Positions 26-25,478 of a stretch of DNA of 31,520 nt are shown here, in pieces. Source of the DNA: a virus; IMG/VR virus record IMGVR_UViG_3300020478_001455, positions 1 through 31,520 of that record; one strand, given 5' to 3'. The notes beneath the pieces are model-generated. The model was not told the origin of the DNA and made no database searches. It saw only the letters and a program-made list of their open reading frames with translations. Both the position numbers and the translations under genes were made by a program. Numbering within the stretch: the stretch's first letter is position 1; every line of letters starts with the position of its first letter.

Positions 26-102
26 GGGGGTGTAGCTCAGTTGGTTAGAGCGCCTGCCTGTCACGCAGGAGGCCGAGGGTTCGAGTCCCTTCACTCCCGC
101 CA
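26..102 (+). tRNA. tRNA-Asp (GTC)
   Basis: A full cloverleaf can be drawn. The acceptor stem pairs 26-32 (GGGGGTG) with 92-98 (CACTCCC) with one G-T pair. The anticodon stem pairs 53-57 (CCTGC) with 65-69 (GCAGG). The seven-base loop 58-64 carries anticodon GTC at 60-62. The T arm holds TTCGAGT, and CCA is encoded at 100-102. It reads Asp codons GAC and GAT. It is the middle member of a three-tRNA cluster. Confidence 0.96.
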
Positions 103-105
103 CGT

Positions 106-180
106 GGTCCCTTCGTCTATCGGTTAGGACAGCGGTTTTTCATACCGCAAAGAGGAGTTCGATTCTCCTAGGGACTACCA
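106..180 (+). tRNA. tRNA-Glu (TTC)
   Basis: The acceptor stem pairs 106-112 (GGTCCCT) with 170-176 (AGGGACT), closed by a G-T pair at the end. The anticodon stem pairs 132-136 (GCGGT) with 144-148 (ACCGC), and the loop 137-143 has anticodon TTC at 139-141. The TTCGTCTA stretch after the acceptor stem is typical of bacterial tRNA-Glu. CCA is encoded at 178-180. It reads GAA and GAG, and GAA is frequent in the neighbouring AT-rich genes, which would explain why the phage keeps it. Confidence 0.95.
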
Positions 181-1871: not shown

Positions 1872-2374
1872 TTTCGCGAGTCCTTTATAACATCTTCAAG
1901 ATTAACTGTGCTATTAAGATAATTGTTCATAATGTATAAGTCAACACCAATATGATCTTCTAATACTCTTACTAGTTTTTTGCCATATGGACTTTTGTCT
2001 TTTCTATTATGTGGGATAGCACTCATCGGCAATAACTTTACATCTTTTTTATAATATTTACTAAGATGTAATAACCAGTACCATTGTGGTGCCCAGTGTC
2101 TATTTGTTAAGCCTTCTTGTTCAATTTTATCTACAACGTCTTCAGGTTTAAGTTTATGCATTTGAGCATACTTGTTTACTCCACTAACAAATCTTGATAC
2201 AGGATGTCGCAAATAAATGTTAATCATGTCAACGTCATTTATTTGTTCATTAAATTTACTTTCTTTTTTTGCTCTTCTAAAACCATTCCAACCATTTTTA
2301 AATATTGGATATATCCAATCTTTATCTATACGAATGATTTCGCAATCAGTTGTTATTAAATTATTCCAGTCCAT
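1853..2374 (-). CDS. sulfotransferase-like protein
   Basis: The 173-residue protein has two segments typical of PAPS-dependent sulfotransferases: a 5'-phosphosulfate-binding-like PIFKNGWNGF near residues 23-32, and a 3'-phosphate-binding-like LRHPVSRFVSG near residues 55-65. Sulfotransferases move sulfate from PAPS to hydroxyl or amino groups of glycans and small molecules. It is short for the family, so it is a minimal or divergent member. It overlaps both neighbours (14 nt upstream, 19 nt downstream), both radical SAM genes, which points to one operon. There is no clear ribosome binding site at the ATG, so translational coupling is likely. The acceptor is unknown. Confidence 0.68.
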   Translation of the reverse strand: MDWNNLITTDCEIIRIDKDWIYPIFKNGWNGFRRAKKESKFNEQINDVDMINIYLRHPVSRFVSGVNKYAQMHKLKPEDVVDKIEQEGLTNRHWAPQWYWLLHLSKYYKKDVKLLPMSAIPHNRKDKSPYGKKLVRVLEDHIGVDLYIMNNYLNSTVNLEDVIKDSRKCIALD

Positions 2375-3530
2375 GTAAATCTAGTTCTTTAAATAGATCT
2401 GTAAAAATTAAACGTCCATTTAAATTTCTTCGTTGATCCATTCTACCAAGGTTGTAGTAAAATCCTTTTAAGTTTTTTTGCCACGGTGTTGTAGTATAAT
2501 ACTGTATTAAATTTTCATAACTATTTTTTAGATAGCCCATAGGGTTTTCGTTTATTCTTGATTTTAAATCTTCAACTATATCGTCAATCATTGGTTGTGG
2601 TAGATTTAAAATGTTTAAATGTCTCGGAGTATATAGAGGTCCTATAATAAAACTATTATCATTAAAGTTTAATGTTTTTAAATGATTTACGCAGTCATGG
2701 ATACTTTTGTAATTAAGAATTAAATGTAACATATTAAAACTTATTTTGTGATCTAATTTAGAAATTACTTTTAAATTTTTAGAAAAATCTTCCCATACAC
2801 CTAGATGTCTTATGTATTCATATTCGTTTTCTATACTTTCAACACTAATAGTCCAATGAACATTTTTAAAAGAACATAATAATTCAAATACTCCTGTTTC
2901 TGTAGTACTTAAATTAGTGTTTACTCGAACACTGCAATTTGGGTTTTTCTCTTTTAGCAAGTTTAAAAACTCTTTATTTTCTTTCATTAGCATTGGTTCA
3001 CCACCAGCTAGATAAACGTTTTCTAGTTCTGAGATGTTTTCAAATACAAAATCTTTTACTTCTTGTCTTGCTTCTTTATTTGATTTAATTTTTTCATTCA
3101 TTTCTTGTGCCCACTTGCTACTGTATTCAGGACCACAATAAACACAGGCTTGGTTGCAAGAATTAGTCCAACGTAAGTCAACGTGCTTTAGTGTAAAATT
3201 TTTAACGTCATCGTATAACTTTAAATCAGTTTTTGAACCAACTTCTTTTAAGTAATATAGTCTACTACTAATACTACTCAAGTCTGATCTATTTTTTTCT
3301 TGTAAGTAACAACCTTCACAATTTTGTGGTTTCATATCTTGCAACATCATTTGTTTAAGATTAATATTTTTATCTCCTTGCATTATATTTTTGATGTTTG
3401 TATGATTAATGTTACCAAGTTTGTGTTTTGAAATAATACAATTCTTTACTTCCCCACTAGGCTCAAGTTCAAAACCTGTCCACGGTAATGTACAAATACT
3501 TTTATTTTTTAAGAAACTTTTAGCATCCAC
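2361..3530 (-). CDS. radical SAM protein with N-terminal twitch-like cysteine domain
   Basis: This 389-residue protein repeats the plan of the gene two positions downstream. C13, C31, C71 and C74 (C-x17-C-x39-C-x2-C) come first, then the radical SAM motif C125-x3-C129-x2-C132 and an AGGEP segment. The near-identical N-terminal spacing in the two proteins suggests paralogues or at least the same permuted family. The start is GTG at 3530, sharing the G of the preceding TAG stop; AGGA lies about 10 nt upstream. The only nearby ATG is out of frame. The reaction is unknown. The auxiliary cluster in such enzymes often binds the substrate or takes up electrons, which fits a peptide or a small polar substrate. 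Confidence 0.87.
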   Translation of the reverse strand: MDAKSFLKNKSICTLPWTGFELEPSGEVKNCIISKHKLGNINHTNIKNIMQGDKNINLKQMMLQDMKPQNCEGCYLQEKNRSDLSSISSRLYYLKEVGSKTDLKLYDDVKNFTLKHVDLRWTNSCNQACVYCGPEYSSKWAQEMNEKIKSNKEARQEVKDFVFENISELENVYLAGGEPMLMKENKEFLNLLKEKNPNCSVRVNTNLSTTETGVFELLCSFKNVHWTISVESIENEYEYIRHLGVWEDFSKNLKVISKLDHKISFNMLHLILNYKSIHDCVNHLKTLNFNDNSFIIGPLYTPRHLNILNLPQPMIDDIVEDLKSRINENPMGYLKNSYENLIQYYTTTPWQKNLKGFYYNLGRMDQRRNLNGRLIFTDLFKELDLHGLE

Positions 3531-5275: not shown

Positions 5276-5945
5276 GAAACTTCTCCAGTTTATCTTCAAT
5301 TGGTAACTTAAGAAATTCTTTATTAAATTTACGTGCTAGGTAAATCATAAAATGTTTATTTGGTACAGTGTTTTTTTCTCCTAATGAATGGTCGTGTAGT
5401 TTCCAATATTCGCCTTGTGTATAATCTTCCCATATTTGCCAATTGTGATTAGTGTCAATTTTGTCAGCCCAATTTTTATGAGTCCAGTTAATTTTATATC
5501 CAAGTACTGTGTGTAATTTTATATTTTTTTCGTCACAAAGTTTTTTTAAAAGCATCCATTTGTAAACGATATCACTTTGTTCCATTGCTGGACTGTATAG
5601 GTATTTGTAATATAATTTTTTGCTTTCGTGTTCTTCACTTACACTACTAGGCCAATACCCATCACAAGTAAAATTTCTAATTGTGTCATTTTCAACAAGA
5701 GCTTTTCTTTCGTCATTTATTAATTCTACATCAAGTTTTTTTATGCTTGTTAGTTGACATATTGCTTGTGAATAATTGTTATCCATAACAGATTCAAGCA
5801 TTTTGTTTAAAATTAATTGATTGCTAATTGCCGGACCCGCACGGTCTTCTATGTCAACACCGCACAATTTAAGTACGTTAACCCACGTTGGTCTTTCTTG
5901 ACTTGACCAAGACATTCCACAACCACTAATCAATATTTTTGACAT
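5268..5945 (-). CDS. SGNH-like protein
   Basis: The 225-residue protein begins with a hydrophobic strand leading to GCGMSW, a position matching the nucleophile block of SGNH hydrolases, and a glycine-rich segment follows near residues 38-45. Near the C terminus a stretch with D, H, P and N precedes a helix, as around the Asp-His pair of the other SGNH genes here, but the standard D-x-x-H is not clean. Activity is therefore uncertain. The ATG at 5945 is preferred because AGGA lies 8 nt upstream; an ATG two codons earlier sits too close to it. The start overlaps the upstream radical SAM gene by 20 nt. Confidence 0.6.
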   Translation of the reverse strand: MSKILISGCGMSWSSQERPTWVNVLKLCGVDIEDRAGPAISNQLILNKMLESVMDNNYSQAICQLTSIKKLDVELINDERKALVENDTIRNFTCDGYWPSSVSEEHESKKLYYKYLYSPAMEQSDIVYKWMLLKKLCDEKNIKLHTVLGYKINWTHKNWADKIDTNHNWQIWEDYTQGEYWKLHDHSLGEKNTVPNKHFMIYLARKFNKEFLKLPIEDKLEKFRG

Positions 5946-6747
5946 GAACATTTTCCTTTTTATAATGATCGACTGAATGACTTAATTGTTCAGGACACAT
6001 TGAGCATATGCTTTCTGGTTTATTAATTTGTTTAACTAATCCTTGTACATCTCCATCTGCGTCAACTCCTTTGTAATCATATAGATTGTGTTTCCCCATA
6101 TCAAGTATGTTGGCAATTGGTGCACACTTAAACAATTTATTTTTGTAAAGAATTGGTGTGTCTGGACTCCCACAAATGCTGTGTGCTTTTTTTGGATTGC
6201 TTTTAAATGGAGTAATTTCTCCATTAATTAATTTATAAGGTATAACAAATCTTTTAAATTTGCTTTTGTATATTGTAACGTCATCATGATGTAATTCTAA
6301 TTGTCTATGTCCATCAACTGTGCTTCGTGTTGCTGTCCAACCGTTACGTAGTTTTACAATACGTTTAATTTCTTTTGTAATCATAGGCTCGTGGTCTTGC
6401 CTATGTATACTAACTTGCATTTCCAACGAACCAAACCCAAACCACATCTCAGGATTATATCTACGTAACAAATATCCATTAGTAATAAATCTTATAACTG
6501 CTTCAGGCCATGCTTTTCTAATTGCTTCTAATACTTTTTGTATTCGTGGGTGCATTAATGGTTCACCACCAAATATAGATATTACTGATGGATCAAGTAT
6601 TTTACTCCAAGTATCGCATTGTTCCTGTATATCTTTTAAAGATTCAACTCCTCTACGATCAAAATCGCTTAAACTTATACAGCCTTTACAAGCCAAATTA
6701 CAAGCATAAGCAACATTAAAGTCTAATCTTTTTATTCTATATTTCAT
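5926..6747 (-). CDS. radical SAM protein with C-terminal twitch-like domain
   Basis: The 273-residue protein has C16-x3-C20-x2-C23 close to its N terminus and FGGEP at 59-63. After the barrel come C192, C208, C248 and C251 (C-x15-C-x39-C-x2-C), the normal C-terminal position for a twitch-like auxiliary cluster. It therefore differs in domain order from the radical SAM proteins at 813-1871, 2361-3530 and 6744-7766, although the auxiliary cysteine spacing is alike. The gene overlaps the next radical SAM gene by 4 nt (ATGA type), so the two products may act in sequence or together. The substrate is unknown. Confidence 0.88.
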   Translation of the reverse strand: MKYRIKRLDFNVAYACNLACKGCISLSDFDRRGVESLKDIQEQCDTWSKILDPSVISIFGGEPLMHPRIQKVLEAIRKAWPEAVIRFITNGYLLRRYNPEMWFGFGSLEMQVSIHRQDHEPMITKEIKRIVKLRNGWTATRSTVDGHRQLELHHDDVTIYKSKFKRFVIPYKLINGEITPFKSNPKKAHSICGSPDTPILYKNKLFKCAPIANILDMGKHNLYDYKGVDADGDVQGLVKQINKPESICSMCPEQLSHSVDHYKKENVHVKNID

Positions 6748-7766
6748 TCTAGTGTAGCATACTCCACAAAGTTGTCAGTTGTTTTTATTCGTGCAAACTC
6801 TTCTTGAAACTGTTTATGTTCAGGATGTGCAGGTGCAACAACGTCGTGCCAATTAAAATCTGAAAATGTTTGCCAGTCTGTAATTCTATTAAGCCAAACT
6901 CTATCAGCACCATATTGTTTTCCTAACTCGATTATATCTTCCATCTCATGGTAATTTCCTTTTTGTACTACAAAGTGTAGTATAAATCTAAAATTGTGTT
7001 TCTTTTTTAATTGGGATATACATTCTAAGTTTTCGTTTACTTTGTCCCACTTACCGCCTAATCTTAGTTTTTCGTATGTTTCTTTTGATGCTCCATCAAT
7101 ACTAACTCCTAGTTCTTCCATGTTATTAATAACGTAAGGTACTCGTGTGTGAAACTCTTTAAACATAAGTGCGTTTGTTAATATACTGTATTTGATATTA
7201 TTACGTTCAGGTGTTTGTTCCATGAAGTGTCTATACACGTGCGAAGCAAATGGATCACCATCTGAACCTATATGAACTTGTAAAGGAAATTTGTAATCAT
7301 ATAACCATTCATTAATGCTATCAGCAAGTTTGATTCCTAAATTATATGCAGAACCTTCTTTATGAAAAATTAATCCTGTACGACAACTTGGACATCTTAA
7401 GTTACAAGAATCGTCTATTGCTAATCGCAAATGTTTAATTTTTCTTTCAGGTGTTTGTGTTTTCCATGGTGGAGGATTCTTTTTATCTAGCAACCATGCA
7501 CATTGTTTATTATTACAATAACGATATGTGTTATCAGTTATAGAAGATTGTAAATGCTCTGCCATTTTTGATTGTAGTATTTCTGATAGTGTTTGTATTT
7601 GTAAGTTACCTATACTTTGTGGCAACCACGATTGACATTCACAAGCATAACAACTGCCTTGTTTGTCTATTAGTACAGTATCAAACGGTCGTGGACATCG
7701 CGTTTTGATTTGCAAGTTCTTATTAGTATCGATATCGTAGTGTTCAAATAATCGCTTGTTAATCAT
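6744..7766 (-). CDS. radical SAM protein with N-terminal cysteine domain
   Basis: The 340-residue protein has an N-terminal cysteine cluster (C24, C39, C42, C44, C84, C89), then the radical SAM motif C121-x3-C125-x2-C128. A GSDGDP segment stands in place of GGEP, as in some SPASM-family enzymes, and a later SIDGASKETYE block matches the conserved strand and helix found in SPASM radical SAM proteins. It should generate a 5'-deoxyadenosyl radical for modification of an unknown substrate. It overlaps the small basic ORF upstream by 8 nt and the next radical SAM gene by 4 nt, so it is the first large gene of the minus-strand run 4628-7938. Confidence 0.88.
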   Translation of the reverse strand: MINKRLFEHYDIDTNKNLQIKTRCPRPFDTVLIDKQGSCYACECQSWLPQSIGNLQIQTLSEILQSKMAEHLQSSITDNTYRYCNNKQCAWLLDKKNPPPWKTQTPERKIKHLRLAIDDSCNLRCPSCRTGLIFHKEGSAYNLGIKLADSINEWLYDYKFPLQVHIGSDGDPFASHVYRHFMEQTPERNNIKYSILTNALMFKEFHTRVPYVINNMEELGVSIDGASKETYEKLRLGGKWDKVNENLECISQLKKKHNFRFILHFVVQKGNYHEMEDIIELGKQYGADRVWLNRITDWQTFSDFNWHDVVAPAHPEHKQFQEEFARIKTTDNFVEYATLE

Positions 7767-8586: not shown

Positions 8587-9600
8587 ATGGAATCAAAGAA
8601 AGTATTGTTAGAGTATGTTTGGTTAGACGGATATAAACCTGAACCAACATTAAGATCAAAAATTAAAATCATCGACAGATATTGTAGTCACGTTGCTGAA
8701 GTTCCTACTTGGGGATTTGATGGTTCAAGTACGCAACAAGCACAAGGGTCAAATTCAGACTGCATATTAAAACCTGTACGTTTATACGACAGTCCATTTG
8801 AAACAGATCAAATAGTTTTGTGTGAAGTGTTTAATGCAGACGGAACGCCACATATTTCAAATACAAGAAACAAAATTGAAAGCATTAATCAAAAAGAATA
8901 TTGGTTTGGCTTTGAGCAAGAATATACATTAATGAAAAACGATCGTCCGCTTGAATGGCCGGAAGATGTTACTATGTATCCAAAAGAGCAAGGCGATTAT
9001 TATTGCGGTGTTGGTGCTTCTAACATTGGTTCATTAGGTAGAAAGATAATGCACGAACACACTAAAAATTGTTTAACTGCAGGAGTATCAATACACGGAA
9101 CCAACGCAGAAGTTATGTTAGGACAATGGGAGTATCAGGTGTTTGGTAGAGGAGCAAAGAAAGCCGCGGATAATGCCTGGATGGCACGTTACATACTTTA
9201 CAGAACAGCAGAAAAGCATAACGTTGATGTTAACATAGAACCTAAACCAATTAAAGGTGATTGGAACGGAAACGGTATGCATACAAATTTCTCAAACGAA
9301 ATGATGAGATCAGTAGGTGGCGAAGTATACATTAAAAGTTTATGTGATAAGTTCAAACCTACACACGAACAACATATTGCCGACTACGGTAGTAAAAATG
9401 ATGAACGTTTAACAGGGCTACACGAAACACAACACATTGGTAAGTTTAGTTACGGTATCAGTGATAGAGGAGCAAGTATTAGAATTCCTATGGCGTTAGT
9501 TCAAAATAATTGGAAAGGTTATTTAGAAGATAGACGTCCGTCCGGTAATGCTGATCCTTATAAAGTTACAAACAGAATATTAATAACGTTAGAGAGTTAA
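8587..9600 (+). CDS. glnII: type II (GSII) glutamine synthetase
   Basis: The 337-residue protein matches the eukaryote-like GSII family, not the 470-residue GSI usual in bacteria. It has FDGSST (44-49), FGFEQEYTL (107-115, metal-binding glutamates E110 and E112), GTNAEVM (171-177), GQWEYQ (179-184), GNGMHTN (228-234), RLTG (274-277) and RGASIRIP (294-301). ATP-, glutamate- and ammonia-site residues all appear present, so it should make glutamine. GSII is not controlled by adenylylation, so the phage enzyme would escape that host control. It is monocistronic with its own promoter. Its product is the amide donor for the AsnB encoded at 23715-25478. No truncation or frameshift is seen. Confidence 0.95.
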   Translation: MESKKVLLEYVWLDGYKPEPTLRSKIKIIDRYCSHVAEVPTWGFDGSSTQQAQGSNSDCILKPVRLYDSPFETDQIVLCEVFNADGTPHISNTRNKIESINQKEYWFGFEQEYTLMKNDRPLEWPEDVTMYPKEQGDYYCGVGASNIGSLGRKIMHEHTKNCLTAGVSIHGTNAEVMLGQWEYQVFGRGAKKAADNAWMARYILYRTAEKHNVDVNIEPKPIKGDWNGNGMHTNFSNEMMRSVGGEVYIKSLCDKFKPTHEQHIADYGSKNDERLTGLHETQHIGKFSYGISDRGASIRIPMALVQNNWKGYLEDRRPSGNADPYKVTNRILITLES

Positions 9601-9669: not shown

Positions 9670-10241
9670 GATAGCTTCGCAACCATTATGTAGTCATGTC
9701 CAAAAGGATCTATACCTTTTAATTCATAACCCCAAGACTTTAATAAATCAACTGAATCGAGGTTGCCTTTGTTTTGTTCTACAACAATTACAGGATTATA
9801 TTTTTTAATTGTTTGTTCAGAACCTTGAATTGCTCTAAGTTCATAACCTTCAATATCGTACTTTATAAATGTAACGTTTTTTAAATTAAACGAATCTAGT
9901 GTTCTAATTTTTACAGCCACGTGGCCTCTATTTTTAATTTTGCCAACCTTAGTACTAGAAGTAAAAGTTTTCTCGTTTTTTTCTCCTATACCTACTACTG
10001 TGTATGTAAATTTGTTAATGTCGTTTACATTTTCCTTTACAAATTTTTTGTGATCAGAACGAAAGTCATAGCAATATATGTGATTGAAATAGTTTTCCAT
10101 TTCTCTAGCAAACCCACCTTCTCTTGCACCAACATCTACACCGTTTCCGTTAGGTTTAATGTACGGAACTGCTAGTTGAAATGTAGTATTCCAGCGGTTG
10201 ATTTTTCTCGCCCAACTATCTTCTGGACCCTTTATTTTCAT
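9663..10241 (-). CDS. FkbM-family methyltransferase
   Basis: The 192-residue protein has a SAM-binding glycine loop in GVDVGAREGGF (about 34-44), TLDSF (114-118) and the FkbM signature IKYDIEGYE (126-134) followed by the IQGSE turn. FkbM enzymes are S-adenosylmethionine-dependent O-methyltransferases found in polyketide and surface-glycan pathways. It is compact but complete for the fold. The ATG at 10241 shares its A with the stop of the gp41-type helicase gene (TAATG), so it is coupled to replication genes although its function looks unrelated. A second FkbM gene lies at 30532-31158. The acceptor is unknown, most likely a sugar. Confidence 0.85.
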   Translation of the reverse strand: MKIKGPEDSWARKINRWNTTFQLAVPYIKPNGNGVDVGAREGGFAREMENYFNHIYCYDFRSDHKKFVKENVNDINKFTYTVVGIGEKNEKTFTSSTKVGKIKNRGHVAVKIRTLDSFNLKNVTFIKYDIEGYELRAIQGSEQTIKKYNPVIVVEQNKGNLDSVDLLKSWGYELKGIDPFGHDYIMVAKLSA

Positions 10242-11668
10242 TACTGTTCTTCGTCTGAGTGTAGTTCGTTTAGTAATTGTCTTAGTTTGCCACCTTCAAC
10301 TGTTGCTTTAATCTTGCCAACCTCATCTCCTTTAGTTGGATCTGGTACTCTTGGTTGTGCATCAGTTTTGTCCTTGCTCACTTTAGATTTTTGTTTTAAT
10401 GAATCATATATTGGACTTTTAGTTTTACCTTGATAATTTTCTTCCTCTTCTAAATCTCTAATTCTTAAACTGTCAACATCAAATTCTAAATCAACTTTTT
10501 GCCCAACACCGCTTGAACTTCTCGTTTTCATAAACTGAATTTGATACCTACCACGTTCTTTCATTGCTCTACTTGTAAAGATACCTATTACGTTGTCTGC
10601 TGTTTGTACTTTGGATAATCCGCCCGCTATGTGAGAATGGTCAAATTCAATCTCTTCAACACTTGCTCTGTTCAACTGTGATGCTGTTGCTAATAAACAT
10701 TGTTTCTCAACTGCTAAATTTCTTAGTTCTTCCGAAACATATTTGTCTTTAATAAACAAATCGCTTGGAGATATTCTTTTTGATTTTGGCATCATTAGAT
10801 CCAGATAATCAATTAATACTCCGTCAAGTTTCTTTTTAGTTTTAAGTTCTAATTCTTTAATATATGTTCTAATATCTAAAACAGTACTACCACTTGGCAA
10901 ATATTTGATATACAGCAATCCAGATTTTTTAGCTAACATTTTAACTTTCATTTCAACATTATCTATTTCTGGAAATACTTTACGTGTTGGAATGTTAGTC
11001 ATCATTGCATCTAATCTCATAGCAGTAAGTTGTTCACTTAATTCAAATGAGATATATGCAACGTTCAAGCCAGCTGTTGCCCAATTCACTGCAAGATTCT
11101 GTAAGAATAAACTTTTACCTGCGCCTGATCCACCTGCAAAAATGTTTAATTCACCTCGGTTAAAACCACCGAACAGTCTCTTATCAATGTTTGGCCAACC
11201 TGTGCTGACCTGTCCGTTAGAGTTTTTCAAAAACTCTAATCTACCTTTTGGATCTTCAAAGTAGTCTGTACCTAGATCTTTTGTCAATCCTACACTTACC
11301 GCGGCCTTCACCATATCTTCTACTGGAGCATAGTCGCCCTTTTCAAGTAAGTCTGCAGATTGTAAAATTGCACTTTCTAGTGCCTTGTGTCTGGAAAACG
11401 TTTCAAATTCATCCAATAACCAATTAAAGTGACTTGGATCTAAATCTTTTGCTGATTTTAATTTAATATCGTGTTTAGCATTAACCTGTTCAACATCAGG
11501 CATAACTTTGTATTCTTCTACATAGTCTTTAATAAATTTTGCAATAGGTTGTAATTTTCTATCAAAACTTTTTGGTGTAAAAATATTTTGTGCTCTAGCA
11601 AATGATTCAGCATCAGCTAATAGCATTTCTAAATATAACTTTTGTACATCTATATTATAATCAGCCAT
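10241..11668 (-). CDS. 41: gp41-type replicative DNA helicase
   Basis: The 475-residue protein is a DnaB/gp41-family hexameric 5'-3' helicase that unwinds DNA at the fork and works with primase. It has a helical N-terminal region (1-130), the RecA-like core with Walker A GGSGAGKS (179-186), SFEL (207-210), and Walker B LIDYLDL (285-291). The later SQLNR segment is typical of DnaB helicases. Length is near that of T4 gp41. GGAG lies 6 nt before the ATG at 11668. The tail after about residue 420 is polar and low in complexity. It lies next to the primase gene as in T4, except that a radical SAM gene has been placed between them. Confidence 0.94.
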   Translation of the reverse strand: MADYNIDVQKLYLEMLLADAESFARAQNIFTPKSFDRKLQPIAKFIKDYVEEYKVMPDVEQVNAKHDIKLKSAKDLDPSHFNWLLDEFETFSRHKALESAILQSADLLEKGDYAPVEDMVKAAVSVGLTKDLGTDYFEDPKGRLEFLKNSNGQVSTGWPNIDKRLFGGFNRGELNIFAGGSGAGKSLFLQNLAVNWATAGLNVAYISFELSEQLTAMRLDAMMTNIPTRKVFPEIDNVEMKVKMLAKKSGLLYIKYLPSGSTVLDIRTYIKELELKTKKKLDGVLIDYLDLMMPKSKRISPSDLFIKDKYVSEELRNLAVEKQCLLATASQLNRASVEEIEFDHSHIAGGLSKVQTADNVIGIFTSRAMKERGRYQIQFMKTRSSSGVGQKVDLEFDVDSLRIRDLEEEENYQGKTKSPIYDSLKQKSKVSKDKTDAQPRVPDPTKGDEVGKIKATVEGGKLRQLLNELHSDEEQ

Positions 11669-12590
11669 TTAAATCTCCACAAAATATTTTACAATAATTA
11701 TTAGCAGTTTCCAACCGTTTTGTCGATTCATAAAAATTTACCACGTCTTTATCCGTTAAAATATCTTTAATTTTTTTATTTTTAATATTGTATTTTTTAT
11801 TTCTAGGGTTCCACATTGTTTTATATGCAATCAAGTAAGTTCCTATATAACAACAAGGATAAAAGTCACCAAACGCCGAAATGAATATAAAGTCTTTTAC
11901 TTTACCGTGCTTTAGACATTGAGGGCTCATTTTTTCAGGTGCTTTACCTTCCATAATCAGAGATCGTGTATTTTCCTCTGTTGATCTATATTTTTCACTT
12001 GGTATCAAATTTTTATCATAATTTGGATCAAAGCCTTTAATACTAGTAATTATTCTGAAGTTATTAATGCCTAAAGATTTTGCCATTGTTTTTGCTTCTT
12101 CAATTTGATGCTCATTGTGTTTAAAGACTATAAATTTCCATACTGATTGTACACCCGAAGCACCAACTATTTTTAAAGCTCTAAGCACTGTTGGCCATTT
12201 AGAATTTACTCTGTACAAATGATTAGTATCCTCAAGTCCATCTATACTAAATTCTATCTCATCAGTTGGTGATAAAATTTCTACAAGATTTTGCCAAAAA
12301 GATTCTCTTTTGCCACTTGCGTTAGTTGTTATTTGCACACGTATTTGCATATTTTTAATTCTTTTGACTAACTCAAGAAACTTTGAGTGGTATATAGCAT
12401 CACCAGTGTTACCTTCAAAATGAACTACTTCTGTGATACCTTCTAAAAAATTACAGAGAACATCAATGTCCATTTCTTGTATTTGTTTCACTTTTGGAAA
12501 TTGTTTTTTAAACCAAGTACGTGGACAACCCGAACAGCCAATTATACATTTATTAGTAATTTCAATATTAAATTTATATTTGTTATCCAT
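11661..12590 (-). CDS. radical SAM/SPASM-type protein inserted between helicase and primase genes
   Basis: The 309-residue protein has C15-x3-C19-x2-C22 at its N terminus, and later cysteines C225, C246, C247, C300 and C304 in the place of a SPASM or twitch domain. The usual GGEP is replaced by FEGNTGDA (58-65), which keeps the strand position. ISPTD-like and SIDGLED (115-121) strands fit the partial TIM barrel. It overlaps the primase gene by 8 nt and the helicase gene by 8 nt, so it is embedded in the replication operon. It is the only radical SAM gene outside the left island. The substrate is unknown; DNA modification is possible but nothing in the protein shows it. Confidence 0.85.
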   Translation of the reverse strand: MDNKYKFNIEITNKCIIGCSGCPRTWFKKQFPKVKQIQEMDIDVLCNFLEGITEVVHFEGNTGDAIYHSKFLELVKRIKNMQIRVQITTNASGKRESFWQNLVEILSPTDEIEFSIDGLEDTNHLYRVNSKWPTVLRALKIVGASGVQSVWKFIVFKHNEHQIEEAKTMAKSLGINNFRIITSIKGFDPNYDKNLIPSEKYRSTEENTRSLIMEGKAPEKMSPQCLKHGKVKDFIFISAFGDFYPCCYIGTYLIAYKTMWNPRNKKYNIKNKKIKDILTDKDVVNFYESTKRLETANNYCKIFCGDLNG

Positions 12591-13650
12591 ATATTTTTCT
12601 TTTCAAATCGATTTTTAACTTATTAGTTTCAGTACTTTTAAGTATCGATTGAATTGTAAATAGTCTGCCATATTTGTTCGTGGCTTCAGCAACGTCATGT
12701 ATTTTTTTATTCCATTCCGGAAATGCAACACCCCAACCAAACTCAATTGCTTGATTAATTAACTTTTGTCCAGGTTTATCTTTGTCTGGAACAATTATAA
12801 TTTGCCTGTTTAAATTCTCAATCAACTCTTTTTGTGTATCATTTATCTCTGATCCTAATATGCTGACACCAGAAACGGCAATAGCATCAAATGGGCCTTC
12901 TGTTACAATTACAAATTTTCTTGTCCAGTCTTGTGCGTCCATATTAAAAACATATCCTGGTTGAACATCTGTATAATATTTTATTCCATCTTTTGGATCA
13001 AAGGAATGTTCTTGTAATCTTCTTCCTGTATATCCAACTACTTCCCCTTTCCAGTAAAACGGAATTATTACTCTGTTCGCCATATCAAAAAAAGGATCAG
13101 ACGAATACATAAAGTCATACCATTCAGCACCAATTCCTCTTCCTTCTAGATATGATAGTAATTTGTCAACTAATTGTTTTTGTTTGCTACTCAACGTTGC
13201 TTTTACAACATATTTTTCACCGTCCCAAACTTTTTTATCAATATATCTATCTAACCACCATTCTAATCTGTGACAATTAGCTGGCAATTTTGTTTTGTTA
13301 AATCCTATAAATCTTTTCCTTTTAAAAGATTCAACATCCGACTCCTCCTGACGTATTGCTTCAATTGCCAACTTTTGTATAGTTTGGTCTGGAATACCAA
13401 GATATCCCATAAGCAATCTCATTCTTTGTGAAAGTCGTCTACCAATTACATAACTTGTTTTAAATCCACAATTGAAACAGTGATAAGATGTGGTGCCATC
13501 AGCACTAGTCATTATTCCCCCACGTTTCTTTTTGTCTTGTGTTTCTCCATTATGAATACAACATGGAGCATTAAATGATATCCACCCAGACGGAGTTTTC
13601 TTTCTAGCCGCAGGTAAAGACGTCAGTATCGTTGACTGGATCAGGTTCAT
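12583..13650 (-). CDS. 61: gp61-type DNA primase
   Basis: The 355-residue protein has a zinc-binding region with C30/C31, H33, C58 and C61 in the CHC2 arrangement, then a TOPRIM domain with EGPFDA (251-256) and PDKDKPG (288-294), the metal-binding acidic motifs. It should make RNA primers on the lagging strand in partnership with the gp41-type helicase. Length matches T4 gp61 (342). The ATG at 13650 is used; a GTAAAATA box ends 8 nt before it and there is no Shine-Dalgarno sequence. The gene is separated from the upstream structural-looking gene by 11 nt. No defect is visible. Confidence 0.92.
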   Translation of the reverse strand: MNLIQSTILTSLPAARKKTPSGWISFNAPCCIHNGETQDKKKRGGIMTSADGTTSYHCFNCGFKTSYVIGRRLSQRMRLLMGYLGIPDQTIQKLAIEAIRQEESDVESFKRKRFIGFNKTKLPANCHRLEWWLDRYIDKKVWDGEKYVVKATLSSKQKQLVDKLLSYLEGRGIGAEWYDFMYSSDPFFDMANRVIIPFYWKGEVVGYTGRRLQEHSFDPKDGIKYYTDVQPGYVFNMDAQDWTRKFVIVTEGPFDAIAVSGVSILGSEINDTQKELIENLNRQIIIVPDKDKPGQKLINQAIEFGWGVAFPEWNKKIHDVAEATNKYGRLFTIQSILKSTETNKLKIDLKRKIYG

Positions 13651-14500: not shown

Positions 14501-14875
14501 ATGAGTGAAATTTTTAAGACATTAAGGGACAAATTTCCTTTTTTAAGCCTAATTAGAAAGGGTGATTTGGAATTTGTTGGTATAGTTCAAAATCAAGACA
14601 ATAATGTAATCAGCTTTTATGATTATGGTAGATTAATGAATCCACAAGATAAAATGAGATATTTGAAATGTGGTGAAATTTGGTGGTACGAGTCTAATAG
14701 AAAATTACCAATTAACATATTCCTTAAAGGAGATTTTAGATATTTCCGTTCAACATTGGTAACTTTAAATTCAAAAGATATTCAAATAGTCGAAGGCCCA
14801 ACTGTTAAGTTATCTGAAATTTCAAAGAAACGGGTAAAAAGAAGAACTATCCAATTAGTCAGAAAACCTGTTTAA
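14501..14875 (+). CDS. hypothetical protein, conserved-looking small phage protein
   Basis: The 124-residue protein starts MSEIFKTLRD and has mixed alpha/beta character. It has a conserved-looking central block (GEIWWYESNRKLP) and a strongly basic end (residues about 108-122). No catalytic motif or membrane segment is visible, and I do not recognise a family. It is a lone plus-strand gene between two minus-strand groups. It lies 32 nt from the divergent start at 14468 and its stop overlaps the end of the small basic gene by 4 nt. No Shine-Dalgarno sequence precedes the ATG. DNA or RNA binding through the basic tail is a guess. Confidence 0.65.
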   Translation: MSEIFKTLRDKFPFLSLIRKGDLEFVGIVQNQDNNVISFYDYGRLMNPQDKMRYLKCGEIWWYESNRKLPINIFLKGDFRYFRSTLVTLNSKDIQIVEGPTVKLSEISKKRVKRRTIQLVRKPV

Positions 14876-15027
14876 ACTTTTCCGTCTGAATTAATATATT
14901 TTGCGTAATATATCGTTAAAGGATTATCTGGTTGATAATGTAATCCTTCATCCATTGATTTTTTTGAGCGATGATTGGAGTTTTTCTTTTTGGGTTTTTT
15001 AGTGGCTTTACGTTTCCTGTGTTGCAC
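14872..15027 (-). CDS. small highly basic protein (51 aa)
   Basis: A GTG-initiated ORF at 15027 encodes 51 residues. The first 24 are mostly Lys, Arg and Asn (opening MQHRKRKATKKPKKK), followed by a neutral, aromatic-rich tail (GLHYQP, IYYAKYI). A GATAAATA box ends 9 nt before the GTG, the same layout as other starts here, and this argues that it is real. It overlaps the DnaE-like gene by 20 nt and the convergent gene by 4 nt. The composition suggests nucleic-acid binding. It is not identified, and its shortness leaves some doubt. Confidence 0.5.
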   Translation of the reverse strand: MQHRKRKATKKPKKKNSNHRSKKSMDEGLHYQPDNPLTIYYAKYINSDGKV

Positions 15028-15598
15028 TAAAACTATATTTATCACGTGATAATAAATTTAGTTGAACTACGATTGCATGAGCATAAGCAACTGCGTGTGA
15101 TTTTTTAAAGAAGTAACTACCATCACTTGGTTTATCCCATACTTCCTTTAATATAATATCCCAACCCATATTCAGCAAATATCTTTTTGCTGGACGTATT
15201 ATAGCTAATACAGCCGCAAGTTGTTCTATTGTTTTTGGTTTTAGTGTTGAAACTATTTTATAATGTCCATTTAAATGAAAAAGTTGGTCAACAATTTTCT
15301 CATCAGTAAGTAAGTCCCAATTTGGTTCTTGTATCATAAGTTCTACAAGTTCCTGTTCTGATTTTATGTTTTTATAGATACCAACATTTAAACAATCAAT
15401 TTTAAAGTAACCTCTGTCTTCAGCATTTTTATAATCTAAAGTTGAATTTCCTGTTATTGGATGTTCTGGTACCGCATGAAAGTAAACACCAGTTTTGTGT
15501 TTTTCGTGTGTTTTGTCATTAATAATAGACGCTGGTGTATGTTTAAATAATTTTAACACACCGTCTCTATCATGAAAATCTATATCTACATCAGGCAT
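15008..15598 (-). CDS. miniature DNA polymerase III alpha (DnaE)-like palm protein
   Basis: The 196-residue protein carries three segments of the C-family polymerase palm in the right order. PDVDIDF (2-8) matches the DnaE motif with two catalytic aspartates. FKIDCLNV (65-72) matches the KFDFLGL motif with the third. IEQLAAVLAIIRPA (124-137) and KSHAVAYA (166-173) match later conserved segments. Real DnaE is about 1,100 residues, with PHP, fingers, OB and tau-binding parts that are absent here. The spacing between the first two motifs is cut from roughly 150 to about 60 residues. The start at 15598 shares TAATG with the upstream stop, and AAGGA lies 8 nt upstream; the ORF could extend 10 codons upstream. 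Polymerase activity is unproven. Confidence 0.65.
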   Translation of the reverse strand: MPDVDIDFHDRDGVLKLFKHTPASIINDKTHEKHKTGVYFHAVPEHPITGNSTLDYKNAEDRGYFKIDCLNVGIYKNIKSEQELVELMIQEPNWDLLTDEKIVDQLFHLNGHYKIVSTLKPKTIEQLAAVLAIIRPAKRYLLNMGWDIILKEVWDKPSDGSYFFKKSHAVAYAHAIVVQLNLLSRDKYSFSATQET

Positions 15599-15849
15599 TA
15601 TTCTGTTCCTTGTGGCCTTTCTTTCCATGATCTAGGCTTATAAGTTCCGTTATGAAGTGCCTCCATGTTTATTGCTAACTGTTTTTTATGTTCGGCTGTT
15701 AATCTTGCTTTTTTCTTTTCCATATTTTTTAAAACTTGTTCCACATTACTTTGTCCTGTAATAATTTGTGCTGTATTCAACATTGCCATCATGGGCAATC
15801 CAAATACAAAAATAAAAAATAATACCATTATTATTACAAAAGTTTTCAT
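15598..15849 (-). CDS. small membrane-anchored protein
   Basis: The 83-residue protein begins with a strong hydrophobic segment (about residues 4-25: FVIIMVLFFIFVFGLPMMAM), followed by a charged helical region (EQVLKNMEKKKARL) that may be coiled coil, and a basic end. It is probably a single-pass inner-membrane protein with a cytoplasmic tail. No family is recognised. Its start and stop codons are fused to those of its neighbours (TAATG at both ends), so it is coupled within the operon. There is no Shine-Dalgarno sequence. A membrane protein inside the replication operon is odd; anchoring a complex to the membrane is a guess. Confidence 0.65.
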   Translation of the reverse strand: MKTFVIIMVLFFIFVFGLPMMAMLNTAQIITGQSNVEQVLKNMEKKKARLTAEHKKQLAINMEALHNGTYKPRSWKERPQGTE

Positions 15850-17417: not shown

Positions 17418-17904
17418 ATTCAACCATTTCACATTGTCTTGAAATATCTTTTACAAAATAAGCACATACAGGATTTGGACCTTTTGTTAAAGGAACAGCA
17501 AGTAATTGCCCTGATTTTATTTTTGGGAAATACCATTTAACTTCTGTATAGATATCAACAACATCTATTGGAAGAAAATCTGGCTTTGCACTAGATAAAG
17601 GATTAAAAGTAAATGCATCAAATCCTCTATCATTTAAACTTGTGATAGGTAGTACGTGCATTTCCGGTTGTCCTAATTCTCCTATTAACATTTTCCAATC
17701 TAAAGGCATTTTAATTTTATATTTGCCAATTTCTAATATAGCCGCAGGTGCATTAAAACTTTCTAAAAATATTAAAGGTATGTAAAAGAAATCTGGATTT
17801 TCTGGATCTGAGTTATCCATTACTGCAAACCTTAATTGTTCATCAACATATTCAGGTATTCTTTCTAGTGTGTATGTTCTATTTTCCAGTGTAAGGATTT
17901 TCAT
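17401..17904 (-). CDS. conserved-looking hypothetical protein downstream of uvsW
   Basis: The 167-residue protein is mostly beta. Blocks such as FFYIPLIFLESFNAPAA, KMPLDWKMLIG and SLNDRGFDAFTFNPLSS look strongly constrained, and the end has VKWYFPKI, GQLLAVPLT and CAYFVKDIS. I recall proteins of this pattern from T4-like marine cyanophages, without a known function; this is memory, not a search. No catalytic site or membrane segment is clear. The gene starts inside the end of uvsW (26-nt overlap), which suggests coupled expression. Confidence 0.7.
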   Translation of the reverse strand: MKILTLENRTYTLERIPEYVDEQLRFAVMDNSDPENPDFFYIPLIFLESFNAPAAILEIGKYKIKMPLDWKMLIGELGQPEMHVLPITSLNDRGFDAFTFNPLSSAKPDFLPIDVVDIYTEVKWYFPKIKSGQLLAVPLTKGPNPVCAYFVKDISRQCEMVEYGSVW

Positions 17905-19348
17905 AATCTATCTTTTCTATATTATACGGATAATTTGCCTCTTTGTAAAACTTTTTTCTTTGTGTTAAATGCCTTTTTGCAAACTTGCAACTGCTGGTAA
18001 TATCCCAAATTTGTACATTATCTTTATCTTCTGCTTTACGTATGCCTCGTCCTATGCTTTGTATTACACGAACAAAGGATTTACCTGGTTCAATAAGAAC
18101 AAGGTTGAATATCCTAGGAATATTAATCCCCACAGAAGCCACTCCATATGTGGCAATAATGATTTTATTTTGCGTTGTAGACACTTCATCGTAGTGCTCT
18201 TTCCTTTCTAATGTTTTAGTTGATCCTGATATAAACACAGAACCTTTTAATTTTTTTTGTAGTATTTCCCCCGCGGATATTCTGTCTACTAAAATTAGTG
18301 TGTTACCCGATAACGAAATATCTTTTATTGTTTGTGCAATCCAGGTTGTCCTGTTGCTATCCGTAGTTAGCCATTTTAATTCTTCTTGGTAGTTTTTGAA
18401 CATTGGGTGGTCTTGTGTTTGTAAAACATTTACGTGGCAGTTTGCAAGTACTCCTTTGTCTTGTAATTCCTTAGCAGGTAACTTTTTTATTACGTCACCA
18501 ATTGAAACTTTAATCCCCATAAATTCAAATTCTGCTTTAGGTACTGTGCCTGTTAGTCCCCAACGTATACCGCAGTGTGCAAATGGTCCGGTTAATAATC
18601 TTTTAAGCACATCTGCTTTTGCCATATGTACTTCGTCTATTATTACTGTATTAATACCATCACAAAATTCTTTGAACTCGGTACTATGTTCATTTTTTGC
18701 TTTTTTCTCAAGTACGTTTAAACTTTGCCAGGTTGCAATAGTATTATATCTTCCTACTTCTTTCCGGTCACCATAATAAACGCCTGTGTCTAAATTACAA
18801 GCAACAAAGTCTTCTTCTGTTTGTGTAACTAAACTTTTGTTTGGAACTATTGTTATTGTTCTTCCATATGGTTCAACTAATTGGCATAATGCCGCAGTAA
18901 TAATAGTTTTACCTGCTCCAGTGGCAATCTCTTGTATAGATTGTGGATTTTCAATAAACTTGTTTATGGTGTCCACTTGATAGTCTCGTAATTCTATATT
19001 TTTTCCTGCTTCAGGATGATTCTCTGGCCATTGTATATGTGACAAATAATTTTTGTCTATTGCTTTAAATTCAAAATTATGTTGGATTCTTTTGTCCTCA
19101 AAGTCAACATAAACTCCTGCTTCTTCTAGTATTGGAAGTACTTGGTCAACTAGATTTAGATAAGTTGTACCACCTAATCCAAAAAAAGCAATTTTGCCGT
19201 CCCATCTTCCTAATTTAACAGAAGGTAAATGATAGGCATATGGAACTTGATATTTGAATTTATTGTGTAGGCGTTGTCGCCATTTTAAATCTAAATTTTC
19301 AAATTTAACGTTTACTTCGTCTTTTATTACCAGTTTACATGAACTCAT
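17879..19348 (-). CDS. uvsW: UvsW-type superfamily 2 DNA/RNA helicase
   Basis: The 489-residue protein matches T4 UvsW in size and plan. An N-terminal domain (1-115) is followed by the Q-like RDYQ (121-124), Walker A ATGAGKT (142-148), DEVH box (238-241), LTGT (265-268) and motif VI QSIGRGIRK (430-438). UvsW branch-migrates and unwinds R-loops and recombination forks, and in T4 it switches replication from origin- to recombination-dependent. All helicase motifs appear intact. The ATG at 19348 overlaps the upstream stop (ATGA). It is the second gene of the operon driven from the promoter at 20708-20735. Confidence 0.95.
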   Translation of the reverse strand: MSSCKLVIKDEVNVKFENLDLKWRQRLHNKFKYQVPYAYHLPSVKLGRWDGKIAFFGLGGTTYLNLVDQVLPILEEAGVYVDFEDKRIQHNFEFKAIDKNYLSHIQWPENHPEAGKNIELRDYQVDTINKFIENPQSIQEIATGAGKTIITAALCQLVEPYGRTITIVPNKSLVTQTEEDFVACNLDTGVYYGDRKEVGRYNTIATWQSLNVLEKKAKNEHSTEFKEFCDGINTVIIDEVHMAKADVLKRLLTGPFAHCGIRWGLTGTVPKAEFEFMGIKVSIGDVIKKLPAKELQDKGVLANCHVNVLQTQDHPMFKNYQEELKWLTTDSNRTTWIAQTIKDISLSGNTLILVDRISAGEILQKKLKGSVFISGSTKTLERKEHYDEVSTTQNKIIIATYGVASVGINIPRIFNLVLIEPGKSFVRVIQSIGRGIRKAEDKDNVQIWDITSSCKFAKRHLTQRKKFYKEANYPYNIEKIDYENPYTGK

Positions 19349-20738: not shown

Positions 20739-21203
20739 ATGAAAAAACAAGTATTAAGTAGAAGAAAACACTTAAAAAGACAGTTCAAAAAGTCATTAGA
20801 ACTGAAACAAGATATTGCGGGTTATAAACCTACCCTTGCTGTTGCGGCATTTTGGTACAGAAAGTTAAATGGACTATTGTTTAATAATAAATTACCTGGA
20901 TGTTATATTGAAATTAAAAAATTACATTATGACTGGGGTAGATGTGTTGTTGATTGGGACAATAGAAAAACACCAAAAGGAAGATTTAATCAAAGGATAA
21001 TTCCTTATCATATTCCTACAACTTACCGTATTGAGTTACACAGCAAGTATCCAAGATGGAAAGATTTTATTGAAACTTTAGCACACGAAATGGTGCATTT
21101 ATATCAAATGCAAATTATGAAAGATCCTTATTCAAATCATAATCAAAATTTCTATTCTTTTAGAAATAAGTTTAAAGCGGTTGGTTTAAGACTTTATCGT
21201 TAA
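20739..21203 (+). CDS. SprT-like zinc metalloprotease
   Basis: The 154-residue protein has the HEMVH zinc motif (116-120) with catalytic E117, a third likely ligand at H134 in the HNQNF segment, and the FRNKF end of SprT-like domains. The front part (about 32-70) holds the conserved WYRKLN and DWGRCV-type strand. SprT/Spartan proteins cleave proteins crosslinked to or bound on DNA. Its place next to uvsW fits a role in DNA repair or in removing host DNA-bound proteins. No zinc-ribbon tail is present. The ATG lacks a ribosome binding site. The 3' end overlaps the convergent gene by 32 nt. Confidence 0.85.
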   Translation: MKKQVLSRRKHLKRQFKKSLELKQDIAGYKPTLAVAAFWYRKLNGLLFNNKLPGCYIEIKKLHYDWGRCVVDWDNRKTPKGRFNQRIIPYHIPTTYRIELHSKYPRWKDFIETLAHEMVHLYQMQIMKDPYSNHNQNFYSFRNKFKAVGLRLYR

Positions 21204-23714: not shown

Positions 23715-25478
23715 TTAAAAATACATATTATATTTTTTTATCCAGTCACTAAAAATCCAAGCAGGTACTAGAGCTTTTCCTGCCTTTTGACTAGCTCTTA
23801 TAATATCTAATCCGTGTTGTTCTTTCATCCTATCTTTATAAAATTTTTGTAAAGTTGCATCCATATTTTTTGTTAACCAATGGCCAACTGGTACAGTCCA
23901 TCCAGTTTTCATTTTGTTAATAATACTGTTTGGTAGTATGTTTTTATAAGCTCTTTTGGTTAAAATTTTTGTATCAGCCTTACCCTTCCCCATTTTTATA
24001 TCAGAGTGCATACTCATACAATAATTCATAAATGTTTTTGTTGCTAAAGGAAAACGTCCTTCCATACTATATGCCATTCCGTATTTGTCGTTTCTGTTAA
24101 ACATTTCTTCCGGAACCTGTGCAACACAATCAAGTGCCATATACGATCCAATTGGGTCTTCTGGATTCCATAAATCACCAGTATAACATTTTTTAAATTC
24201 TTCTAATAAAATATTATCGTCTATAGGAGTTTCAGTTAACATTAATGGTCTTTTTATTCTATGTAACCAAAGTTTTAATACATCGTCCCAAGTTTTAAGT
24301 CCGTTATCTAAGTTTTGTTTTTTCAGCCATTGTAGGCTTCTCATCTTCCAATATTTTGGATACCCAGCAAGTATCTCATCTCCCATATCACCAGCCATAG
24401 TTACAACTATACCGTGTTGAGATAAAACCTTATTTGTATAATTGTACATAGACATACTAGGATTATATACTGGTTGTTCCATATAGTAGATACTGTCATC
24501 CCAATTCTCAATAAAATTTGTTGGTGTAATTTTTACTTCTGTGTGATTAAAATTATTTTTTTCTGCTAATATTTTTGCACAGTTGGCGTCACTATTATAG
24601 TCTTCGTCGACTACTACATTTGGCTCCATTTTGTTAGTAAAAGAATTTACTTCACCTTTAATTTGTTTTAATTCGTATGCAACTAAACTAGAATCTAACC
24701 CTCCACTTAAGAATACACCAATTTTTCTTCGTCCAATGCTACACATATCAACAGTTTTACGAGCCATAGATTTAAATTCAACCATATCAAATGTTTGATT
24801 ATTGCTAGTTGGTTTAATGTGTATTCTATGATATTGTTTTATTCTTTTATTAGCCACGTCATATATTAGTGTTTCGCCTGCTAATAATTTTTTAATACCT
24901 GTAAAGAATGTATTTCTTAATGCATTAATTCCTGTTTTCCCCATGAAACTTACTGCCAGGTTGTCAAGTTTCCGGCATCCTGGAACTTTGTCTAACATAC
25001 CTTTTAGTTCAGATCCAAAAACTAATCCTTGTTTTGTTTCAGCATAAAATAAAGGTTTAATTCCAGCATGGTCTCTAGACAACCAAAGTTCTTGTTCTTT
25101 AACTTTATAGTATGCAAAGCCATGCATGGAATCTATCTCATCAAGAAATTTTAATCCATACTTGTCTAATCCCCACGCAAGTAAGTCTGTATCACATCCA
25201 GTAATTCCTGCAAAGCCATTACTTTTGTGTTTTTCTTTTAGTTCATAGTAGTTAAAAATTTCACCGTTATATATTAACGCATTTCCTTTAGGAGTTTTCC
25301 ATGGTTGTATTGATAGTTCAGGGTTTGCCATGATACTTAAAAGGTTATGGCCAAGAGTTACTTTATAGTCTGGATCCCACCAAACTTTGTTCCCATCGGG
25401 TCCTCTATGTTTACAAGTTTGAATATAATTGTTAATAAACGTAGGATCGTGATCAGTTATTCCATATATTCCACACAT
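23715..25478 (-). CDS. asnB: glutamine-dependent asparagine synthase-type amidotransferase
   Basis: The 587-residue protein has the class II glutaminase nucleophile C2 (MCGIYG), with RGPDG, NGEIFNY (71-77) and CDTD in the glutaminase site, then the ATP pyrophosphatase loop SGGLDS (258-263) and the later AGDMGDEILAGYPKY block. It hydrolyses glutamine and passes ammonia to an adenylated acid, classically aspartate. Both domains look complete. AsnB homologues in polysaccharide clusters often amidate uronic acids instead, and the neighbours here are glycosyltransferases, so that is a fair alternative. The start at 25478 (TAATG) has AGGA 5 nt before it. The phage GSII could supply its glutamine. 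Confidence 0.93.
   Translation of the reverse strand: MCGIYGITDHDPTFINNYIQTCKHRGPDGNKVWWDPDYKVTLGHNLLSIMANPELSIQPWKTPKGNALIYNGEIFNYYELKEKHKSNGFAGITGCDTDLLAWGLDKYGLKFLDEIDSMHGFAYYKVKEQELWLSRDHAGIKPLFYAETKQGLVFGSELKGMLDKVPGCRKLDNLAVSFMGKTGINALRNTFFTGIKKLLAGETLIYDVANKRIKQYHRIHIKPTSNNQTFDMVEFKSMARKTVDMCSIGRRKIGVFLSGGLDSSLVAYELKQIKGEVNSFTNKMEPNVVVDEDYNSDANCAKILAEKNNFNHTEVKITPTNFIENWDDSIYYMEQPVYNPSMSMYNYTNKVLSQHGIVVTMAGDMGDEILAGYPKYWKMRSLQWLKKQNLDNGLKTWDDVLKLWLHRIKRPLMLTETPIDDNILLEEFKKCYTGDLWNPEDPIGSYMALDCVAQVPEEMFNRNDKYGMAYSMEGRFPLATKTFMNYCMSMHSDIKMGKGKADTKILTKRAYKNILPNSIINKMKTGWTVPVGHWLTKNMDATLQKFYKDRMKEQHGLDIIRASQKAGKALVPAWIFSDWIKKYNMYF

What the first reader, a model, noticed from the sequence alone, without database searches (positions are those of the whole stretch)
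15008..15598. A 196-aa miniature of the DnaE (C-family) polymerase palm in a T4-like phage
The protein keeps PDVDIDF, FKID, the LAAVLAIIRPA-like helix and SHAVAYA in DnaE order, including the three aspartates expected to bind metal. It lacks the PHP, fingers, OB and tau-binding parts. T4-like phages normally use the B-family gp43 polymerase. The protein could be a stripped-down polymerase, a nucleotidyltransferase with a new role, or a decoy that binds host clamp or loader.
Basis: partly seen in the sequence, partly recalled or inferred. Interest (0 to 1): 0.72.

Follow-up and report, generated by a model that had tools for sequence, protein, structure and literature searches.

The report
C-terminal half of split phage DnaE
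This small phage gene makes one half of a bacterial-type DNA polymerase active site; the other half is made by a gene far away in the same kind of phage, and this split mini-polymerase had already been described in other giant phages, so the find is a new, marine member of a known oddity.

Summary
Window 15598→15008(−) encodes a 196-aa DnaE-related protein with D3/D5/D7, K66/D68, an IIRPA helix and a SHAVAYA helix, in DnaE order. The catalytic residues are invariant in 207 distinct relatives. It belongs to PHROG 11778 (E=2e-65). AlphaFold gives a confident model (pLDDT 92), and its 12 best PDB matches are all Pol III α/C-family entries.

It is not a self-sufficient mini-palm. It is the C-terminal half of a split C-family catalytic core. 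The N-terminal half, with the GS/NTP-binding motif GxGRGS, is a separate ~173-aa protein (PHROG 11127) that ends where DnaE residue 392 lies; this protein starts at residue 399. In isolate phages the halves occur together (59 of 60 listed C-half records), with a B-family polymerase in those tested. Iyer et al. 2021 (PMC7824862) already reported this split minimal Pol III in group 2.2 jumbo phages.

New here: abundance in marine phages, presence in a 141-kb phage, the fixed split point, co-inheritance of the halves, and a nearly invariable convergent neighbour gene. The N-half is not in the 31.5-kb window; its presence in this phage is inferred. No activity has been measured.

The parts
15008..15598 (-). 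C-terminal half of split DnaE-like polymerase core (PHROG 11778), 196 aa plus stop
   Evidence: TAATG coupled start; AF2 pLDDT 92.1, Foldseek top 12 all C-family Pol III alpha
15578..15592 (-). D-x-D-x-D motif (residues 3-7), equivalent to E. coli DnaE D401/D403, on the first strand of the model
   Evidence: profile alignment to E. coli DnaE 399-420; invariant in 207 sequences
15395..15403 (-). K-x-D motif (residues 66-68), equivalent to K553/D555 of E. coli DnaE by motif; aligned with KVD of the phage 563-aa DnaE
15191..15220 (-). LAAVLAIIRP, start of the fingers (E. coli DnaE about 632-640)
15083..15109 (-). FKKSHAVAY, end of the fingers (E. coli DnaE about 755-763)
14501..14875 (+). convergent 124-aa ORF of unknown function (PHROG 11637), conserved neighbour of the C-half
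   Evidence: found convergent in 214 of 216 C-half loci with room for it
15598..15849 (-). 83-aa ORF with an N-terminal hydrophobic stretch, stop overlapping the C-half start (TAATG); no family match
   Evidence: no counterpart in G007 by blastp
17879..19348 (-). UvsW-type DNA helicase, upstream in the same syntenic block
   Evidence: PHROG 16 E=3e-78; same order in G050 and jumbo phages
12583..13650 (-). T4 gp61-type DNA primase, downstream in the same block
   Evidence: PHROG 47 E=5e-34
10241..11668 (-). T4 gp41-type DnaB helicase, downstream in the same block
   Evidence: PHROG 19 E=5e-75

Best explanation
The protein is the C-terminal half of a split, minimal C-family (Pol III alpha/DnaE) catalytic core. 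It carries the three metal-binding aspartates, the active-site lysine and two short fingers elements. A second phage protein (PHROG 11127, about 173 aa) carries the GS/NTP-binding part of the same nucleotidyltransferase fold. Shown: homology of both halves to complementary parts of DnaE, a fixed split point, invariant catalytic residues, co-occurrence and co-inheritance. Inferred: the two chains assemble into one active site of about 370 aa that transfers nucleotides to a DNA 3' end. Also inferred: because it lacks the thumb, most of the fingers, the PHP domain and the clamp- and tau-binding parts, it works as a short-patch accessory or repair polymerase with the T4-type recombination and priming machinery (UvsW, gp61, gp41, clamp loader), while the B-family enzyme replicates the genome. 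The N-half itself is inferred for this phage; it is not in the window.
For: PHROG 11778 E=2e-65. N-half PHROG 11127 with Pfam DNA_pol3_alpha E=5e-9. N-half profile aligns with E. coli DnaE 322-392 and the C-half starts at 399; 151 of 160 N-halves end exactly 29 residues after GRGS, and all 255 C-halves checked are standalone with at most about 60 open residues before DxD. Invariant D3/D5/D7/K66/D68/R135/H168 in 207 sequences. AF2 models with pLDDT 92.1 and 91.7; best PDB matches of both are Pol III alpha. 59 of 60 listed isolate C-half records also hold the N-half; 4 of 4 contigs of at least 250 kb found by the C-half also hold the N-half. Mantel r=0.67, p=0.0001 over 20 pairs. B-family polymerase present in all 15 contigs or genomes of at least 250 kb tested. 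Same gene order as the window in G050 (328 kb, both halves). Marine N-half contigs (G095, G119) belong to the same phage type as the C-half contig G007, which is colinear with the window.
Against: No contig with a C-half at least 75% identical to the window's also holds an N-half; linkage in this lineage is by colinearity of separate contigs. Three of the 11 N-half contigs of at least 250 kb lack a recognisable C-half. Complex formation and catalysis are untested, and a two-chain model could not be run. The parts of DnaE that grip DNA and the incoming nucleotide are mostly missing. Foldseek E-values are only 1e-3 to 1e-2.
Confidence: 0.82

Rival explanations
1. The C-half works alone as a stripped-down polymerase or a nucleotidyltransferase with a new role.
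For: Confident isolated fold and intact metal ligands; no N-half in the window or in the 121-kb contig G007.
Against: The GS/NTP-binding element of the fold is missing from it and present in a separate gene that ends where this one begins; the two co-occur in isolates.
Confidence: 0.08
2. The split pair is a catalytically inactive or structural factor, for example a decoy for host clamp or clamp loader, or a scaffold.
For: DNA-gripping parts are lost; no activity is known.
Against: All catalytic residues are invariant over 207 sequences with about 45% mean identity, and the clamp- and tau-binding parts of DnaE are absent, so nothing is left to mimic them.
Confidence: 0.05
3. The C-half partners in this marine lineage with the linked single-chain 563-aa DnaE rather than with the N-half.
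For: The 563-aa DnaE lies within about 7 kb of a C-half in 16 of 16 fully flanked loci.
Against: That protein already has GS, DVDIDF and KVD in one chain; it is absent from the window and from most C-half contigs (5 of about 45 have it), and was not detected in the isolate genomes searched.
Confidence: 0.04
4. The gene is a decaying remnant of a full dnaE.
For: It is short and lacks most DnaE domains.
Against: 207 distinct sequences keep the same ends, length (180-210 aa) and catalytic residues.
Confidence: 0.01

Closest known systems
Split minimal DNA polymerase III alpha of group 2.2 jumbo phages (Iyer et al. 2021, PMC7824862); PHROG 11778 (C-half) and PHROG 11127 (N-half)
   Same: Same two-gene split into an NTP-binding N-part and a metal/template-binding C-part, far apart in the genome, next to a T4-type replication set and a B-family polymerase; same family by HMM.
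   Different: Window protein is 40-53% identical to the isolate members; marine, uncultured; N-half not in the window. Iyer et al. looked at isolated jumbo phages; here it is also in a 141-kb phage and abundant in marine contigs.
Bacterial DnaE / Pol III alpha (E. coli, Taq)
   Same: Catalytic aspartates and lysine, the beginning of the fingers (RP) and the SHAxAYA helix, in the same order; fold match.
   Different: No PHP, thumb, most of fingers, HhH, OB or tau/clamp parts; two chains instead of one.
PF07733-only proteins of marine jumbo phages (Weinheimer and Aylward 2022, PMC9123017, cluster PGC_A, 51.9% of members)
   Same: PF07733 is the Pfam family that the N-half hits, so these are probably N-halves.
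   Different: Reported only as a domain count, without recognising the C-half or the split.
PHROG 405 full-length phage DnaE and the 563-aa PHP-less single-chain DnaE of marine phages (L091, L093)
   Same: Homologous catalytic core.
   Different: Single chain with both halves and the fingers.

Membership tests
Split minimal Pol III alpha of phages (Iyer 2021) | Member of the C-half family | tested here: met
   PHROG 11778 E=2.3e-65 over residues 3-188
Split minimal Pol III alpha of phages (Iyer 2021) | Mg2+-binding aspartates conserved | tested here: met
   D3, D5, D7, D68 invariant in 207 sequences
Split minimal Pol III alpha of phages (Iyer 2021) | N-terminal NTP-binding half encoded elsewhere in the same genome | tested here: inconclusive
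   Met in isolates and large contigs; not in the 31.5-kb window or in near relatives, which are fragments; inferred from colinear marine contigs with the N-half
Split minimal Pol III alpha of phages (Iyer 2021) | Accompanied by a B-family polymerase | tested here: inconclusive
   Met in all 15 contigs or genomes of at least 250 kb tested; the window and its close, short relatives show none
Split minimal Pol III alpha of phages (Iyer 2021) | Jumbo phage genome (over 200 kb) | tested here: inconclusive
   The record is a 31.5-kb fragment; G095 plus G007 coordinates suggest at least 220 kb; not a strict criterion, since Slicko01 (141 kb) has both halves
Bacterial DnaE (Pol III alpha) proper | Complete single-chain polymerase with PHP, thumb, fingers and clamp/tau-binding parts | tested here: not met
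   196 aa; only DnaE regions 399-420, the K-x-D strand, 596-641 and 752-767 are recognisable
C-family DNA polymerase | Template-directed DNA synthesis | not testable with these tools
   needs biochemistry

The most novel reading that the evidence does not exclude
The two chains form an obligate heterodimeric nucleotidyltransferase of about 370 aa, the smallest C-family enzyme, that has left replication: it adds or fills in a few nucleotides at recombination intermediates or genome ends in T4-type phages, possibly controlled by the PHROG 11637 protein encoded convergently beside the C-half.
Probability: 0.3. Interest if true: 0.65.

Novelty: new member of a known kind. Interest (0 to 1): 0.36.

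Why it matters
It shows that the split mini-Pol III, known so far from isolated jumbo phages, is a common gene pair of marine T4-type phages. It also defines a two-chain C-family active site of about 370 aa, with an exact split point, that can be expressed and tested. If active, it would set the lower limit for a C-family polymerase and bear on the proposal by Iyer et al. that such forms resemble the ancestor of bacterial replicases.

Tried and rejected
Single-protein searches of Pfam, NCBIfam and PDB found almost nothing. Looked for the N-half inside the window and in marine contigs G007, G020, G002 and G023 with two profiles and a motif scan: only the single-chain DnaE of G023 came up. Looked for both halves on one contig of the window's close lineage: none in 34 N-half contigs up to 180 kb. 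Searched those short contigs for a B-family polymerase: none, which is uninformative because they are fragments. Split-intein trans-splicing of the halves was considered and rejected: neither half has extra sequence at the split ends. A two-chain model of N-half plus C-half could not be run with the tool.

Full report
1. Observation. The ORF at 15598→15008 on the minus strand encodes 196 aa. An in-frame ATG lies 10 codons upstream (15628), but the ATG at 15598 overlaps the stop of the upstream 83-aa ORF in a TAATG, and close relatives start at that Met, so the 196-aa form is the likely product. PHROG 11778 ('DNA polymerase', 197 positions) matches with E=2.3e-65, and the full-length phage DnaE family PHROG 405 with 1.3e-7. 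Pfam, NCBIfam and the PDB give only marginal or no hits with the single sequence. A profile of 69 relatives finds only Pol III alpha chains in the PDB at E below 0.4.

2. Correspondence with DnaE. Profile alignment places residues 3-7 (DVDID) on E. coli 401-405 (D401, D403), the LAAVLAIIRPA stretch at the end of 596-641, and FKKSHAVAYA in 752-767. The K66-x-D68 pair corresponds to the VKFDF motif (K553/D555) and aligns with KVD of a single-chain phage DnaE. The catalytic role of D401, D403 and D555 in E. coli is established knowledge. What is missing is the PHP domain, the whole thumb, about 110 residues inside the fingers, and everything after the SHAxAYA helix.

3. Conservation. From three scans of IMG/VR plus isolate phages, 207 distinct proteins were aligned (62 clusters at 70% identity). 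D3, D5, D7, H34, G37, K66, D68, R135, P136, K138, F164, H168, Y172 and N181 are 100% conserved. D3, D5, D7, K66, D68, R135 and H168 hold in all 68 sequences from the scan whose patterns do not contain DxDxD, K66 or D68; that scan's patterns do contain H168. Of 260 loci found, 255 were measured for frame length: all encode a standalone protein of 180-210 aa with few open codons before DxD. This is not a decaying gene.

4. The missing half. The nucleotidyltransferase fold also needs the GS/NTP-binding element, which in DnaE lies just before D401. Iyer et al. [quoted passage not shown] I found that N-half in Atu_ph07 as gp316: PHROG 11127 E=1.7e-70, Pfam PF07733 E=4.6e-9. A profile of 60 N-halves aligns with E. 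coli DnaE 322-392. The C-half begins at 399. In 151 of 160 N-halves the protein ends exactly 29 residues after GRGS. The two chains are therefore complementary, with only about six residues unaccounted for. The first ~95 residues of the N-half have no DnaE counterpart.

5. Co-occurrence. Of 60 isolate records listed with a C-half, 59 are also listed with an N-half; the exception is a 109-kb record not among the rows shown. The pair is also in Alishewanella phage Slicko01, 141 kb, so it is not confined to jumbo phages. In metagenomic contigs of at least 250 kb, 8 of 11 with an N-half have a C-half, and 4 of 4 records of at least 250 kb found by the C-half (two metagenomic, plus the CBB- and GAP32-sized records) have an N-half. 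B-family polymerase (PF00136) is in every contig or genome of at least 250 kb tested. Distances between N-halves and between C-halves of 20 genomes correlate (Mantel r=0.67, p=0.0001). There was no control gene pair, so this shows joint inheritance, not contact.

6. The window's own lineage. The window is a 31,520-base viral record with no N-half and no B-family polymerase. It is colinear with G007 (121.8 kb), which has the C-half at 99.0 kb but no N-half. Another marine contig, G095 (165 kb), carries the N-half at 11 kb and a B-family polymerase at 43 kb, and its structural genes at 103-152 kb are colinear with G007 1-55 kb at roughly 25-79% identity. G119 (180 kb) is colinear with G095. In these coordinates N-half and C-half lie almost 200 kb apart, which explains why none of 34 N-half contigs up to 180 kb shows the C-half. 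G050 (328 kb) carries both, and its C-half (62% identical) sits in the same gene order as in the window: uvsW, two short genes, a C2H2-type gene, C-half, convergent ORF, structural gene, gp61, gp41. I infer, but have not shown, that the window's phage has the N-half and a genome above 200 kb.

7. Structure. AlphaFold2 on 68 aligned sequences gives mean pLDDT 92.1 and pTM 0.81 for the C-half, with strands at 4-8, 21-26, 31-39 and 67-71 that carry the aspartates. The 12 best PDB matches are all Pol III alpha or C-family entries (E 1.5e-3 to 0.9; probability up to 1.0; TM normalised by query 0.34-0.50). The N-half model (pLDDT 91.7, pTM 0.70) also finds Pol III alpha in ranks 1-8. The E-values are modest, as expected for fragments of a large protein.

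8. Likely mechanism. Shown: two DnaE-derived chains with complementary catalytic parts and full conservation of catalytic residues. Inferred: they form one two-metal nucleotidyltransferase active site. Inferred and less certain: a repair, gap-filling or end-processing role. Grounds are the loss of DNA-gripping and clamp-binding parts, the presence of a B-family replicase, and the location of the C-half between uvsW and gp61/gp41 and of the N-half next to the GroES-like gene and the clamp loader in most jumbo phages. Iyer et al. suggested cooperation with the B-family enzyme in synthesis of one strand or in repair. I found no paper in the held library that tests it.

9. Novelty. The family and the split are published, and marine jumbo phages were already reported to carry PF07733 in about half of one cluster (PMC9123017). 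Verdict: new member of a known kind.

Noticed in passing
window 14501-14875 (+): Convergent ORF of unknown function (PHROG 11637) lies immediately downstream of the C-half in 214 of 216 loci with room for it, from marine contigs to RaK2 and Atu_ph07. Such a fixed convergent partner suggests a functional or regulatory link.
   Followed up: partly
L091:91-1782(-), L093:1495-3186(+), L494-L573: A 563-aa single-chain, PHP-less DnaE (GS, DVDIDF, KVD, RP and RAHAVN in one chain) sits next to gp41 in a subset of the marine phages, at least 333 IMG/VR stretches; 16 of 16 fully flanked loci also have the C-half within about 7 kb. These phages would hold up to three polymerase systems.
   Followed up: partly
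N-half proteins, residues 1-95 (e.g. L242:5001-5285): The N-terminal ~95 residues of the N-half have no DnaE match but are predicted with confidence as a helical region; possible interaction module.
   Followed up: no
L209 / W01:3529-5033; G054:381447-390099; L088 gp276/gp277: The B-family polymerase of Slicko01, of contig G054 and of Atu_ph07 is itself split over two ORFs.
   Followed up: no
window 8587-9600 (+): A 337-aa ORF that reads as a glutamine synthetase lies in the phage record (weak match PHROG 21628); also an asparagine-synthase-like ORF at 23715-25478.
   Followed up: no
window 813-1871, 2361-3530, 5926-6747, 6744-7766, 11661-12590 (-): Several radical-SAM-like ORFs with CxxxCxxC motifs, one inserted between gp61 and gp41 (11661-12590, PHROG 21308), plus many glycosyl- and methyltransferase-like genes.
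   Followed up: no
window 20739-21203 (+): SprT-like metallopeptidase motif (HEMVHLYQ) in a 154-aa ORF (PHROG 6361).
   Followed up: no
window 26-180 (+): tRNA-Asp(gtc) and tRNA-Glu(ttc) side by side at the window's left end.
   Followed up: no
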